In this document: in pieces, positions 8,933-20,571 of the stretch | How positions within the stretch are numbered: position 1 is the stretch's first letter | Layout of the letters: each line of letters starts with the position of its first letter | NCBI RefSeq assembly: GCF_004367745.1 | Contig: NZ_CP037993.1 | Location: 2,542,001-2,606,000 of the forward strand | Source: Herbaspirillum huttiense | Lineage (GTDB): Bacteria > Pseudomonadota > Gammaproteobacteria > Burkholderiales > Burkholderiaceae_D | DNA: 64,000 nucleotides | Direction: 5' to 3' | Translations under genes and position numbers: made by a program | The notes under the pieces: model-generated | What the model was told of the DNA's origin: nothing | Databases searched by the model: none | Seen by the model: the letters and a program-made list of their open reading frames with translations, nothing else

Positions 8933-9871
8933 ATGCATGCCAACCTGTCCACGCGCCTGCTGCACGCCTTCCTGGCCTTGGCCGACTGCCGCCATTTCGG
9001 CCACGCGGCCGAGCGCTGCCACGTGTCGCAGTCCGCCTTCAGCGCCATGATCCAGAAGCTGGAAACAGCAACCGGCGCGCGCCTGTTCGAACGCGATACC
9101 CGCAACGTGAGCCTGACGCCGGAAGGTGAAGTCTTTGTCGAGGTGGCACGCCAGCTGGTCGCAGACATGGAGGCGGCGCTGGCGGACATGAACGATTACG
9201 TCGCACGGCGCAAGGGCAGGGTAGCCATCGCGGCCTTGCCATCGCTGGCGGCGGGGTGGCTGCCGCCGGTGCTGGCGGCTTACCGGCAACGTCATCCGGG
9301 CGTGGCGGTGGAGCTGTTCGATGCCATATCGGATCAATGCCTGGACCTGCTGCGCCAGGGCAAGGCCGATATCGCCCTTACCGCGCCGGGCCCCAATCTG
9401 CTGGAGTTCACCACGCAGCCCCTGTGCGCCGACCCGTTCTACCTGGTCTGCCGCAAGGACCATGCGCTGGCCGGCAAGCGCCGCATCAAGGTGGCCCAAC
9501 TGGCCGGGTGCGAAATGATCCACCTGGCGCGCTCCACCAGCGTGCGCCAGCATCTGGATGCCGTGCTGCGGCCGGGCGCGGTGATCCACACCGGGCTGGA
9601 GGTCGAACACCTGGCGACCCTGGCGGCCCTGATCGAAAGCGGCTTGGGCGTGAGCGTGGTGCCGGAGCTGACGCTGTTCCAGTTCCGCCTGCCCAATCTG
9701 GTGGCCATCCCGGTGGACGCGCCCGAGCTGGTGCGGCCGCTGCTGATCGTCACGCCCAAGGAGCGCAGCCTGTCCATCGCCGCGCAAGGCCTTCTGGACC
9801 TGGTCCAGGCCAAGGCGCGCGCTGAAAGCTCACCCCCCGCGCGGCGCGGCCGCAAACCACAGGCTTCCTAG
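8933..9871 (+). CDS. LysR-family transcriptional regulator
   Basis: A 312-residue regulator with the standard layout. An N-terminal winged helix-turn-helix spans residues 6-65 (LLHAFLALADCRHFGHAAERCHVSQSAFSAMIQKLE and ARLFERDTRNVSLTPEG), and a periplasmic-binding-protein-like effector domain starts near residue 92 (GRVAIAALPSLA). The C-terminal tail is basic (PPARRGRKPQAS). Its position, divergent from the CitMHS-AtuA operon with a dyad between them, suggests that it activates that operon in response to an organic acid. The stop codon overlaps the stop of the last chemosensory gene on the other strand in a shared CTAG. Confidence 0.93.
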   Translation: MHANLSTRLLHAFLALADCRHFGHAAERCHVSQSAFSAMIQKLETATGARLFERDTRNVSLTPEGEVFVEVARQLVADMEAALADMNDYVARRKGRVAIAALPSLAAGWLPPVLAAYRQRHPGVAVELFDAISDQCLDLLRQGKADIALTAPGPNLLEFTTQPLCADPFYLVCRKDHALAGKRRIKVAQLAGCEMIHLARSTSVRQHLDAVLRPGAVIHTGLEVEHLATLAALIESGLGVSVVPELTLFQFRLPNLVAIPVDAPELVRPLLIVTPKERSLSIAAQGLLDLVQAKARAESSPPARRGRKPQAS

Positions 9872-10857
9872 AACAATTCCATGGCCGGCAAGTCCGGCTC
9901 GCGCACCAGGTGGCGGTGCTCCTGTTCCACGTAATCGATGACCACCTGCGCGATCACCGTGGCCGCCTCATGCGCGGGCAGGATCACCGTGGTCTCGCCC
10001 GCCATTTGGGCCAGGGCCGCATTGCGCCGGTCCACGGCGTACTGGACGCGCTCCACGCATTGCCGCACTACGTCCTGGAACTGCAGATGGCCCAGCATGT
10101 TGCCGGTGGTAGCGACTAGTTCCTCGCCGTGCGCCATCATCTGCGCGTATTGCTGGTCACTGGTATCGCGCACGTGCTCGAAGCTGCTACGCAGCCTGCC
10201 CACGGCCTCGGCGGTGGCGGCGATGCGATCGAGGTCGGCCGCCGACTGGGCTGTATTGCCGCCCAGTTCGTCGTGCAAGGTCTTGCGCACTTCCGACAAG
10301 GTAGTGCGAATCCGTGCCGCTGCGGTATGCGAATTGGCTGCCAGGTTGCGTACCTCCGAGGCGATCACCTTGAAAGCCGCGCCTTGCGGGCCGGCACGGC
10401 TGGCCTCGATGGCCGTGTTGATCGACAACAGGTGCGACTGCGTACTGATGCCTTGGACGCTCTGCGCCAGGTCCGAGAGATTGTCGATCTCCACGGCAAT
10501 GCGGCCGATGCTCTCGACGTCGCGGCGCATGCGTTCCGGCAGGCTCTTGAGGAATTCCGTCATGGCGACCAAAGCATCGACCGTCTCCAGCATCTCGTCG
10601 CGTACGCGCTCGTTTTCCTGGCTGGCACGCTGCATGCGCTCCAGCAGTTGCGCAGAGCGGTCGCAGAGGGCGCGCGCTTCGCTCATGATGGCCAGCGAGG
10701 AATTCTCGGTCTGCTCCACCGCACCCTTGAGGCGCACGGCGATTTCTTCGTCGAGTTGCATGCTGGCCACCAGGGCGGCCTGGCAGGTCGGTCCCGGTTC
10801 CACCGGCATGTGCGGCTGGGCGCGTACCCGGGTGCGCAGGGCGTGGATGATTCCCAT
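9868..10857 (-). CDS. Soluble receptor-like protein: MCP signalling tip plus CheZ-like DxxxQ helix
   Basis: A 329-residue protein with no membrane segment and no signal peptide. Residues 130-190 carry a shortened, diverged chemoreceptor signalling hairpin (HLLSINTAIEASRAG, then AFKVIASEVRNLAANS), which should contact CheA and CheW. The C-terminal part contains LQFQD262VVRQ266 in a long helix. This is the DxxxQ arrangement of the CheZ phosphatase active site, in which Asp and Gln dephosphorylate CheY. There is no cheZ, cheC or cheX elsewhere in this operon, so it could be the phosphatase; that is my inference. The ATG at 10857 lies one base after the stop of the upstream cheY. It is the last gene of the operon. 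Confidence 0.78.
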   Translation of the reverse strand: MGIIHALRTRVRAQPHMPVEPGPTCQAALVASMQLDEEIAVRLKGAVEQTENSSLAIMSEARALCDRSAQLLERMQRASQENERVRDEMLETVDALVAMTEFLKSLPERMRRDVESIGRIAVEIDNLSDLAQSVQGISTQSHLLSINTAIEASRAGPQGAAFKVIASEVRNLAANSHTAAARIRTTLSEVRKTLHDELGGNTAQSAADLDRIAATAEAVGRLRSSFEHVRDTSDQQYAQMMAHGEELVATTGNMLGHLQFQDVVRQCVERVQYAVDRRNAALAQMAGETTVILPAHEAATVIAQVVIDYVEQEHRHLVREPDLPAMELF

Positions 10858-10858
10858 G

Positions 10859-18608: not shown

Positions 18609-18654
18609 GTTGTGTGTGCCTTTCTCGGGTCCACGGGTTCACTGGAGCAGCGAG

Positions 18655-20571
18655 TCAGGTGCTTTGCAGCTCATCGGCCAGCGAGGCCACTTCCTCGACG
18701 GCGGCGGCCAGTTGCTCGGCCCCCTGGGACTGCTGGCGCGCGGCGGCAGCGGCTTCGGTGGCGGCACGGTCGGCTTCCTGGGCGGCGGCGGCAATCTGCT
18801 CGGTGCCGGTGCGCACCTGCAAGATGGCCGCAGCGACCTCGCTGGCGGCCGAGAGGATTTCCTGCGTGCCTTGCTCCACGGCGGCCACATCGTTTTCGAT
18901 GCTGACCAGGGCGCTGGTGATGGCCTTGGCTTTTTCGGCTTCACCGATGGCAGCGTCGGCAATTTCTTCCAGGTCGCGCTCGACCACGGCGATCTGATCC
19001 TGCACTGCCTTGACCAGATCCTTGATGTTGTCGGCATTGCCGGCCGAGTCGTGGGCCAGGTTGCGGATGTCGGTCGCGACCACCACGAAGCCCTTGCCGA
19101 ACTCGCCGGCGCGGGCCGCTTCGATGGAGCCGTTCACGGCCAGCATGTTGGTCTGGATCGAGACCGTGGTGATGGCATCGACGATCTTGTCGATGCGGCG
19201 CGAGACCAGTGCCAGGTCCTTGATCTGGCGAATCGAGGCGCGTGAGGCGTCCACCGAGTTGGCGATGCCGGCGATGAGCGAATCGACGGCCTTCTTGTTC
19301 TCGCCCAGCAGCGTCCGGATCGCGGTAGCGCGTTCGCCGCTGGTGCCGGCGCGTGCTTGTGCCACCTGCAGGCCGCGTGAGATCTGTTCGATGGCCGTGG
19401 CCGATTCTTCGGTGGCCACTGATTGCACCTGCGTACCTTTGCGGATCTGTTCGATGGCCGACATGATCTGGGCGCTGGCGCGGCTGATTTCCTGTACGGC
19501 CGCCGAGAGTTCTTCGGCGCTGGCGGCGACTTCTTCGGCACTTTTGGCCACATCGGTGGAGTTCTTGAGGTCTTCGGACAGTTCCGAGAGCGCTTGCGAG
19601 GTGGTTTCAGCTTCCGACAATGCCTGGCCTTGCTCGGCCACGGTCTTGGCGGATTCGACGGCAGCGGCCGATTGTTCTTCGGCTGCAGCGGCGATTTCCT
19701 GGGCGCCATCAAGCGCCTGCTTGCTCGCGGCGACCGACTGCTGGGCGCCTACGGCGATCTCTTGCACGCCGGCGACGATCACCTGGGCATCGCGGCGGAT
19801 GTTCTCCAGCTGGGCGCTGATCATCTTGCCGCTTTCGACCTCGCCCAGGACAGTGGTGGCGGCCGCGCCAATGCCTTCGACCACGGCCTTGACTTCACGC
19901 TGGATCTGGCCGACCAGTTCCTGGATCTGCTTGGCGCTTTTTTCCGAGGTCTCGGCCAGGGTGCGCACCTCATCGGCCACCACCGCAAAGCCCTTGCCAT
20001 GCTGTCCGGCGCGGGCCGCTTCGATGGCCGCGTTCAGGGCCAGCAGGTTGGTCTGGTCGGCGATGCGGGCCACGGCCTTGACGATGTCGCCGATGTTGGC
20101 GGCCTGTTTTTCCAGTTCGGCCACCATGGTCACCGAGCTGGACTGGCGCTGGGCGGCGATGCCCACGTTGGTGACCAGGGTGGCGATATCGCCGCTGGTG
20201 CGGGTGACCTGGTTCTGCACGGCCAGCATACGCGCCTGGCTTTGATCGGCATTCTGCAACTGGCGGCCGATGGCCTGCTCTACCTGGCGGAAGGCGGCCA
20301 GCGACTCCTGGGCGGCGCTGGAGGCCTGCTCGGCGCCGCGCGCAATCTGGTCGGAGGCGCTTTTCAGTTCTTCGGTGGCCGCCGAGGCCTCCGAGATGCC
20401 GGCGCTGAGTTCGGCGGTGGCGGCGGCGATGCGCTCGGCGGCCTGCTGCTGCTTGGCCAGGGTGCGGGCCTTCTTGCGCAGGGCATCGGCCTGGCGCGAC
20501 GTCGAGGCGGCCGCACGCTGGTCGGTTGCGCCCTCATAGTTGGAGTTTTGAATAGTCTTGACGAGCGCCAT
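18655..20571 (-). CDS. Cytoplasmic chemoreceptor with two tandem signalling tips
   Basis: A 638-residue, almost entirely coiled-coil protein with no membrane segment, no signal peptide and no recognisable sensor domain. It contains two complete MCP signalling hairpins. Tip 1 is at residues 170-203 (TNLLALNAAIEAARAG, VVADEVRTLAE) and tip 2 at 470-503 (TNMLAVNGSIEAARAG, VVATDIRNLAH), exactly 300 residues apart. Tip 2 has DIR where tip 1 has the standard EVR. Ala/Glu-rich helical arms of about 150 residues flank each tip, with several EE-type methylation-like positions. The ATG at 20571 has AGGAGG eight bases upstream; the longer frame to 20694 is rejected. It is the first gene of the operon. 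Confidence 0.92.
   Translation of the reverse strand: MALVKTIQNSNYEGATDQRAAASTSRQADALRKKARTLAKQQQAAERIAAATAELSAGISEASAATEELKSASDQIARGAEQASSAAQESLAAFRQVEQAIGRQLQNADQSQARMLAVQNQVTRTSGDIATLVTNVGIAAQRQSSSVTMVAELEKQAANIGDIVKAVARIADQTNLLALNAAIEAARAGQHGKGFAVVADEVRTLAETSEKSAKQIQELVGQIQREVKAVVEGIGAAATTVLGEVESGKMISAQLENIRRDAQVIVAGVQEIAVGAQQSVAASKQALDGAQEIAAAAEEQSAAAVESAKTVAEQGQALSEAETTSQALSELSEDLKNSTDVAKSAEEVAASAEELSAAVQEISRASAQIMSAIEQIRKGTQVQSVATEESATAIEQISRGLQVAQARAGTSGERATAIRTLLGENKKAVDSLIAGIANSVDASRASIRQIKDLALVSRRIDKIVDAITTVSIQTNMLAVNGSIEAARAGEFGKGFVVVATDIRNLAHDSAGNADNIKDLVKAVQDQIAVVERDLEEIADAAIGEAEKAKAITSALVSIENDVAAVEQGTQEILSAASEVAAAILQVRTGTEQIAAAAQEADRAATEAAAAARQQSQGAEQLAAAVEEVASLADELQST

What the first reader, a model, noticed from the sequence alone, without database searches (positions are those of the whole stretch)
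9868..20571. Unusual ten-gene chemosensory operon with non-standard receptor, scaffold and adaptor parts
The operon combines parts that are each uncommon: a soluble receptor with two signalling tips, a triple CheW fusion, a HEAT-repeat protein, a STAS protein, two CheY proteins, and a receptor-like protein with a CheZ-like motif. There is no separate single CheW, CheD, CheZ or membrane receptor. The genes are packed with TAATG or ATGA overlaps, which suggests a fixed stoichiometry. The output may be motility or another function such as pili or surface polysaccharide, whose genes follow 1.3 kb away. The whole looks like an alternative signalling array that I have not seen described in this exact form; novelty is my judgement only.
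Basis: partly seen in the sequence, partly recalled or inferred. Interest (0 to 1): 0.8.

Follow-up and report, generated by a model that had tools for sequence, protein, structure and literature searches.

The report
Cytoplasmic chemosensory operon with receptor-shaped phosphatase
These ten genes are a known type of bacterial sensing operon (class F9) that is predicted to build a signalling array inside the cell without a membrane, and its last gene likely encodes a receptor-shaped enzyme that would switch the signal off, which would explain a family of receptors whose role is unknown.

Summary
The ten-gene operon is real and intact at the stated coordinates, but it is not undescribed. A double-tip receptor (DosM) and a triple CheW are the published signature of chemosensory class F9, known from Vibrio cholerae cluster I (VC1394-VC1403, also ten tags). 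The same gene order recurs in relatives from beta- to deltaproteobacteria, so the novelty claim for the operon falls.

The new point is the tail gene. Its product has a receptor tip, a nearly invariant DxxxQ (the CheZ phosphatase motif; 70 of 70 joint-aligned proteins) and, after a variable linker, a terminal Phe. Profile comparison sets its helix in register with CheZ at FQDxxxQ (joint E 1.4e-5; receptor control sets 0.045-0.17). Pfam's CheZ model does not recognise the window protein. The same family includes McpA-like receptors of apparent F7 clusters, beside a cheY in 19 of 20 loci read. I propose that these are CheY-P phosphatases on a receptor scaffold, which would explain the conserved McpA C-terminus that a 2020 paper calls of unclear role. 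No activity has been tested.

The HEAT gene occurs in exactly the genomes that carry CheW3 (11 of 369 in the class). The polysaccharide neighbours are not conserved in the same genus.

The parts
18655..20571 (-). DosM: soluble receptor with two signalling tips, 638 aa
   Evidence: MCPsignal E 1.1e-61 in several stretches; tips near residues 183 and 483; no TM
16995..18608 (-). CheW3: three CheW domains, 537 aa
   Evidence: CheW in three stretches
15849..16961 (-). CheB methylesterase with receiver domain, 370 aa
15206..15820 (-). HEAT-repeat protein, a constant F9 part, 204 aa
   Evidence: HEAT_2 E 2.7e-19; same 11 of 369 genomes as CheW3
14346..15206 (-). CheR methyltransferase, 286 aa
13963..14349 (-). 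CheY-a, 128 aa
   Evidence: Response_reg; Tyr at position 106 in 89 of 95 rows
11555..13966 (-). CheA kinase, 803 aa
   Evidence: Hpt, H-kinase_dim, HATPase_c, CheW
11319..11558 (-). STAS-domain protein, 79 aa
   Evidence: STAS_2 E 5.6e-5, below cut-off; conserved beside cheA in relatives
10859..11233 (-). CheY-b, 124 aa
   Evidence: Response_reg; invariant Trp at position 103, 53 of 53 rows
9868..10857 (-). Tail protein: receptor-shaped, predicted CheZ-type CheY-P phosphatase, 329 aa; DxxxQ at residues 262-266, C-terminus MELF
   Evidence: MCPsignal E 2.2e-16; motif and tail conservation; model; register with CheZ

Best explanation
The ten genes are an F9-class chemosensory operon by their parts and order, predicted to build a two-layered array in the cytoplasm, and their last gene likely encodes a receptor-shaped, CheZ-type phosphatase that would remove the phosphate from the second CheY. 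Shown by sequence: a receptor with two tips, a triple CheW, one CheA, CheB, CheR, two CheYs, HEAT, STAS, and a tail protein with a receptor tip, a conserved DxxxQ, a variable linker and a terminal Phe. Inferred from the published V. cholerae F9 array: DosM rods span two CheA/CheW3 base plates. Inferred here: the tail protein meets the array by its tip; its C-terminal tail docks CheY-b-P much as the C-terminal helix of CheZ does; D262 and Q266, level with T50 and E51 on the other helix, catalyse dephosphorylation, so the system carries its own off-switch. CheB and CheR would adapt the receptors; HEAT is a constant part, perhaps a tether for them. The signal input is unknown, since DosM has no sensor domain, and the output is probably not the flagellar switch.
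For: F9: DosM and triple CheW are the class's unique parts; V. cholerae VC1403, VC1402, VC1401, VC1397 and VC1394 have the products found at positions 1, 2, 3, 7 and 10 and the cluster is named vc1394-vc1403; conserved order. Phosphatase: D262 and Q266 70 of 70, terminal Phe 69 of 70 in the joint F9 and McpA-like alignment; 61 of 61 close database homologues have motif and tail; 0 of 64 other own receptor-like ORFs and 0 of 18 other receptors in the F7-like loci have the motif; hhalign to CheZ in exact FQDxxxQ register, F9 E 0.0013, McpA-like 4.4e-5, joint 1.4e-5, against 0.045-0.17 for four receptor control sets and 0.083-0.33 for reversed profiles; register kept with the motif masked; CheZ Pfam model touches 10 of 43 members weakly, against at most 3 of 43 ordinary receptors; gene next to a lone cheY in both settings; CheY-b and tail gene both present in 48, both absent in 37, CheY-b alone in 1 of 86 loci.
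Against: No activity is shown. The window protein itself has no CheZ match even at E<=1, and every family match to CheZ seen is below the curated cut-off. The CheZ family model also touches a few ordinary receptors of this genome weakly (E 0.026-0.24). The F9 set alone gives hhalign probability 18%, and falls to E 0.067 when the motif is masked. The DosM control set aligned 20 columns over the same CheZ motif (E 0.071), so a coil can match there by chance. CheY-b/tail co-occurrence rests on 3 to 4 changes and only two independent pairs on the CheA tree. Five of 50 F9 tails fit the CheR tether pattern by letter. One F9-like locus (L229) has a tail-like protein without the motif. The fold lists shown contain receptors, as expected for the scaffold. 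The genome has two ordinary CheZ genes that could serve these CheYs.
Confidence: 0.7

Rival explanations
1. The operon is F9, but the tail protein is only an orphan receptor whose DxxxQ is structural, and the F9 CheYs lose phosphate by themselves or through the genome's ordinary CheZ proteins.
For: Its fold is a receptor hairpin; two CheZ genes lie elsewhere in the genome; the window protein is not recognised by Pfam's CheZ model; the papers read call VC1394 and McpA-like proteins receptors.
Against: D and Q are as conserved as the receptor tip, the motif is absent from 64 own and 18 neighbouring receptors, and the CheZ register is specific against controls.
Confidence: 0.2
2. The conserved C-terminal tail is a tether for CheR or CheB, like the pentapeptide of other receptors, and the tail protein is the array's methylation platform.
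For: Same place, behind a flexible linker, and similar length; 5 of 50 F9 tails fit x-[HFYW]-x(2)-[HFYW] by letter.
Against: The window (AMELF) and 44 of the other 49 tails do not fit, one of these 44 being cut by its contig's end; McpA's end binds none of four CheR proteins (PMC7184735, section 11 read whole); CheR and CheB are also present in loci that lack the tail gene.
Confidence: 0.12
3. The operon controls the neighbouring polysaccharide cluster.
For: UDP-glucose dehydrogenase starts 1.27 kb upstream on the other strand.
Against: In three same-genus loci LysR and the permease on the other side are kept (94-99% identity), but no UDP-glucose dehydrogenase, glycosyltransferase or flippase hit was found in the 2.6-5.2 kb upstream that could be read, nor in eight other loci of the family compared in that call.
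Confidence: 0.05

Closest known systems
Chemosensory class F9, Vibrio cholerae cluster I (VC1394-VC1403, DosM array)
   Same: Double-tip receptor, triple CheW, ten tags, products at positions 1, 2, 3, 7 and 10 as in the window.
   Different: VC1394 is described as membrane-bound while the window's tail protein has no TM. The V. cholerae sequences were not compared here; HEAT, CheR, CheY and STAS positions there are inferred from numbering.
CheZ, the CheY-P phosphatase (PF04344)
   Same: DxxxQ preceded by FQ, hairpin of a helical bundle, linker, then a C-terminal helix or tail ending in Phe (architecture from PMC7750401 passages).
   Different: Carries a receptor tip; longer hairpin; window protein not matched by the Pfam model; activity untested.
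McpA-like receptors of F7 clusters
   Same: One family with the F9 tails by profile (E 1.4e-51 through the C-terminus); FQDxxxQ and a terminal Phe in 20 of 20 loci read; conserved C-terminus reported in PMC7184735.
   Different: Ends xFF rather than ELF; lies in F7-like clusters. That the loci read are McpA-like is inferred from order and features; no P. aeruginosa sequence was compared.
HEAT_PBS protein OE2401F of Halobacterium
   Same: A HEAT-repeat protein tied to a chemotaxis gene region (PMC2666748, passages).
   Different: Archaeal; links Che proteins to the archaeal flagellum; no common descent is claimed.

Membership tests
Chemosensory class F9 | Receptor with two signalling domains in tandem (DosM) | tested here: met
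   Two tips near residues 183 and 483, only MCPsignal domains; definition from PMC9321776
Chemosensory class F9 | CheW with three concatenated domains | tested here: met
   Three CheW stretches in 537 aa
Chemosensory class F9 | Receptor of heptad class 44H and CheA assigned by class-specific models | not testable with these tools
   No heptad-class or Che-class models at hand
Chemosensory class F9 | Two-layered array in the cytoplasm | not testable with these tools
   Needs cryo-electron tomography; DosM shows no TM helix
CheZ (PF04344) | Match to the Pfam model above its cut-off | tested here: not met
   Window protein: no match at E<=1; 10 of 43 family members match weakly, best E 0.0014 at 19 bits against a cut-off of 30.7
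CheZ (PF04344) | DxxxQ phosphatase motif | tested here: met
   D262 and Q266, 70 of 70 in the joint alignment
CheZ (PF04344) | CheZ fold by structure comparison | tested here: inconclusive
   Model is a long hairpin whose listed matches are receptors and other long-helix proteins
CheZ (PF04344) | Dephosphorylates CheY-P | not testable with these tools
   Needs a bench assay
McpA-like receptors (F7) | Common family with conserved C-terminus | tested here: met
   F9 tails against McpA-like set E 1.4e-51, 305 columns
McpA-like receptors (F7) | Encoded in an F7 cluster | tested here: not met
   The window gene lies in an F9 operon
Pentapeptide-bearing receptors | C-terminal x-[HFYW]-x(2)-[HFYW] | tested here: not met
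   Window ends AMELF; 5 of 50 F9 tails fit by letter

The most novel reading that the evidence does not exclude
Two chemosensory classes whose clusters lack CheZ, F9 and F7, end their signal with a phosphatase that is itself a chemoreceptor hairpin: a CheZ active site on a receptor stalk, docked to CheY by a C-terminal Phe tail and able to sit in the array. CheZ and these receptors share a helix segment of about 66 residues by descent, so CheZ may have arisen from a receptor.
Probability: 0.5. Interest if true: 0.8.

Novelty: new variant of a known kind. Interest (0 to 1): 0.6.

Why it matters
As an operon this is one more member of class F9. The tail protein matters more: the papers read give no function for VC1394-like or McpA-like receptors, and the strict conservation of the McpA C-terminus was called important yet of unclear role. 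A receptor-borne CheY-P phosphatase would give both a function, would say how arrays without CheZ in their cluster switch off, and would bear on where CheZ came from. A single biochemical assay tests it. The HEAT protein also emerges as an F9 part as constant as the signature genes in the genomes sampled.

Tried and rejected
An undescribed array type: rejected, since the parts are the published signature of F9. Output to the polysaccharide cluster: neighbour not conserved. Rfam scan of the window and promoter/terminator scan of 20500-21900 found nothing. A dedicated sensor partner for DosM: no other own receptor stands out by similarity to the DosM tips; two receptors without predicted TM but with PAS domains are only candidates. 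Foldseek and VIA rows shown for the tail model hold receptors and long-helix proteins and no CheZ; that excludes nothing. The CheY-b/tail co-occurrence is strong as a count but rests on few changes, so I do not lean on it. No V. cholerae or P. aeruginosa protein was named in the lists of the three protein searches, so those sequences were not compared.

Bias and dropped rows. The 80 named loci were fetched by HEAT, so they cannot show how constant HEAT is; searches used CheW3 for that. One search examined 97 loci, set 11 aside (no CheA found, or under 2.5 kb behind it), and still held two duplicates of one genome each (L237, L238), which the tree left out. The strict motif count was 45 of 51; five misses have another letter in the FQ part, or H before D, and L229 lacks the motif. 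One search read 64 of about 68 other receptor places. One search read 20 of the 38 places (20 of the best 21); two of these 20 (L269, L279) show no cheA in the stretch read. One search used 24 of 31 CheZ loci; the other seven gave no frame that passed my length and FQDxx[GAS]Q filter, so that set is selected for the motif; one search used the genome's own two.
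Full report
OBSERVATION. In order: soluble double-tip receptor (638 aa), triple CheW (537), CheB (370), HEAT (204), CheR (286), CheY-a (128), CheA (803), STAS (79), CheY-b (124), receptor-like tail protein (329). Four of nine junctions overlap; the others are gaps of 1 to 85 bp. The genome is one 5.69-Mb contig with 16 CheW-domain places, 71 receptor signalling-domain places and two CheZ genes outside the operon. 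By its nearest named proteins it is a Herbaspirillum close to H. huttiense and H. aquaticum (inference).

WHAT IT IS. PMC9321776 (passages) names two architectures unique to class F9: DosM with double signalling domains in tandem and CheW with three concatenated domains; full F9 clusters were found in 64 of 2781 species. The window has both. PMC7534058 (passages) describes V. cholerae cluster I as F9: base plates of CheA (VC1397) and triple CheW (VC1402) sandwich the receptors, DosM (VC1403) spans them, the arrays are purely cytoplasmic and were seen under starvation in late stationary phase, and the role is unknown. VC1401 is cheB, VC1394 a receptor, and another paper writes the cluster as vc1394-vc1403, ten tags. 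Five tags with a known product fall at positions 1, 2, 3, 7 and 10 as in the window; the other five are inferred from numbering. PMC2890568 (passages) adds that both cluster I CheYs lack residues for FliM contact and that the cluster I kinase and regulators cannot complement the flagellar cluster.

HOW WIDESPREAD. Profiles built on these 97 loci show the order DosM, CheW3, CheB, HEAT, CheR, CheY, CheA, STAS, CheY, tail in 36 of the 86 loci with enough sequence (one of the 36 is a duplicate genome), and shortened, truncated or slightly permuted forms in the other 50. The forms that stop at CheA or STAS are mostly alphaproteobacterial. To avoid the HEAT bias I searched with CheW3: in the same 369 genomes of the class, CheW3 at E<=1e-40 and HEAT at E<1e-40 ring in the same 11 genomes, own included; weaker HEAT matches in 68 further genomes are separated by a wide gap (best 9.6e-19). 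In 398 genomes of the phylum CheW3 rings in nine: six have HEAT in the cluster, one (L224) shows none in a disordered stretch, and two contigs are too short to tell. So HEAT appears to belong to F9 about as firmly as the signature genes. The words HEAT and STAS do not occur in the main text of PMC7534058, PMC9321776 or PMC7184735; two library searches listed only an archaeal paper with a HEAT protein beside chemotaxis genes, and the second listed 15 of 703 papers. In the window's family the HEAT query matched 9 of 145 genomes, eight of them strongly.

THE TAIL PROTEIN. It has a receptor tip (MCPsignal E 2.2e-16). Its model (43 sequences, mean pLDDT 82.1, pTM 0.48) is a long hairpin, helices 25-154 and 156-285, then a helix 295-316 and a low-confidence end 319-329. 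In the F9 alignment D262 is D in 51 of 51 rows with a letter and Q266 is Q in 51 of 52, close to the tip in conservation. Of 50 tails listed, 49 end in -LF or -FF behind a variable stretch; the exception (L141) is cut by its contig's end. All 61 close database homologues, P0080-P0140, have both features. Of 64 other receptor-like ORFs of this genome none has [FY][QH]DxxxQ or ends in ELF; two have LQDxxxQ or SQDxxxQ elsewhere. The genome's own CheZ proteins read FQDLTGQ and FQDITGQ and end in ESLGF and DSLGF. By symmetry about the tip at 155, D262 and Q266 should face residues near 44-48, close to T50 and E51, the N-helix residues most conserved outside the tip region (inference).

SAME FAMILY IN F7-LIKE CLUSTERS. 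Weaker homologues carry QFQDRxSQ-like motifs and end in -TFF. A search with one of them hit 31 of 303 genomes. In the 20 places fetched, 20 of 20 have FQDxxxQ, 19 end in hydrophobic-x-FF and one in IIMF, 19 of 20 have a lone receiver gene within 300 bp downstream, 1 of 20 has a CheZ in the stretch, and 0 of 18 other receptors there have the motif or the end. The order McpA-like, CheY, CheA, receptor, CheW, CheR, CheB is seen for example in L265, L271 and L273, and a cheA in 18 of 20. This fits the F7 stage 2 of PMC7184735. That paper (passages; section 11 whole) says that in stages 1 and 2 only the F6 systems also include cheZ, that McpA-like receptors are not needed for the F7 array, that P. 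[quoted passage not shown] That my loci are McpA-like F7 clusters is inference from these features.

RELATION TO CHEZ. hhalign with the genome's two CheZ proteins aligned 63 columns with FQDVVRQ on FQDLTGQ, E 0.0029, probability 10.6%; ordinary receptors gave E 0.39 over 12 columns elsewhere. With 24 CheZ proteins: F9 tails E 0.0013 (probability 18%), McpA-like 4.4e-5 (69%), both in that register. Controls: ordinary receptors 0.17, own receptors 0.16, other receptors of the F7-like loci 0.045, DosM 0.071; the DosM match, 20 columns long, does lie over the CheZ motif. The joint set reached 1.4e-5 (79.9%). With the eight motif columns masked the register stayed (F9 0.067, McpA-like 0.0041); reversed profiles gave 0.083-0.33. 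F9 tails and McpA-like proteins are one family (E 1.4e-51 to the C-terminus). Pfam's CheZ model matches 10 of 43 family members at E<=1, best 0.0014, and is not among the 25 commonest families of 43 ordinary receptors, the last of which had three members; but it also touches three or so ordinary receptor genes of this genome at E 0.026-0.24, and not the window protein. So kinship with CheZ beyond the motif is supported for the McpA-like branch and suggestive for the F9 branch. Membership in CheZ as Pfam draws it is not met.

MECHANISM. Array building is taken from the published V. cholerae work. Inferred: the tail protein, with a membrane anchor (40 of 49 relatives have a predicted N-terminal TM) or without (the window and its nearest relatives L124, L125, L126, L236, L237; but the same-genus L233 has one), meets the array by its tip, holds CheY-b-P by its C-terminal end and removes the phosphate by DxxxQ. 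CheY-b has a Trp in 53 of 53 rows where CheY-a mostly has Tyr. CheY-b and the tail gene are both present in 48, both absent in 37 and split in 1 of 86 loci, but on the CheA tree that is three and four changes and two independent pairs, so it is weak support. The CheZ plan of hairpin, linker and C-terminal CheY-binding helix (PMC7750401, passages) matches part for part.

OUTPUT AND POSITION. Nothing here ties the operon to the polysaccharide cluster, and V. cholerae work argues against FliM. In 15 of 47 relatives with room a ParA-like ATPase gene follows the tail gene (four scanned ones match AAA_31 and ParA-type models), which would suit positioning of a cytoplasmic array (inference). The window has none.

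NOVELTY IN PRINT. Searches listed no paper that, from title and abstract start, proposes a phosphatase role for VC1394-like or McpA-like receptors; the library holds only openly licensed papers, and the 2016 DosM paper was not held. The operon itself is a new member of F9; the label 'new variant' is for the receptor-shaped phosphatase.

Noticed in passing
L134:16407-17174, L140:16417-17226 and 13 other loci: A ParA/MinD-like ATPase gene follows the tail gene as an eleventh gene in 15 of 47 relatives with room; absent from the window.
   Followed up: partly
L162-L203, alphaproteobacterial F9 loci: Many of these loci lack CheY-b and the tail gene and instead have a lone receiver gene and a 670-920 aa open frame with receiver similarity, perhaps a hybrid kinase (not domain-scanned).
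   Followed up: no
L127, L129, L148, L152, L156: F9-like operons in MAGs titled Spartobacteria, Anaeroferrophillacea, Desulfobulbaceae, Geobacter and a deltaproteobacterium, which suggests wide horizontal spread or binning errors.
   Followed up: no
L154 (Chromatium okenii): DosM and CheW3 are each split over two or more open frames: sequencing error or real decay.
   Followed up: no
own genome 4018500-4022500 (L109) and near 4254512 (L043): Two receptors without predicted TM but with PAS domains, possible sensor partners for a cytoplasmic array.
   Followed up: partly
P0251, P0254, P0256, P0258, P0259: These distant homologues carry a precomputed Pfam label PF28017 that the local Pfam copy did not report for the three scanned (P0251, P0254, P0259).
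   Followed up: no
L149 and L172, between STAS and CheY-b: An extra 262-aa CheW-like open frame lies inside the F9 operon of two Methylococcales MAGs.
   Followed up: no
window 7417-9871: Permease and LysR genes beside the operon's 3' end are kept at 94-99% identity in three same-genus loci.
   Followed up: yes
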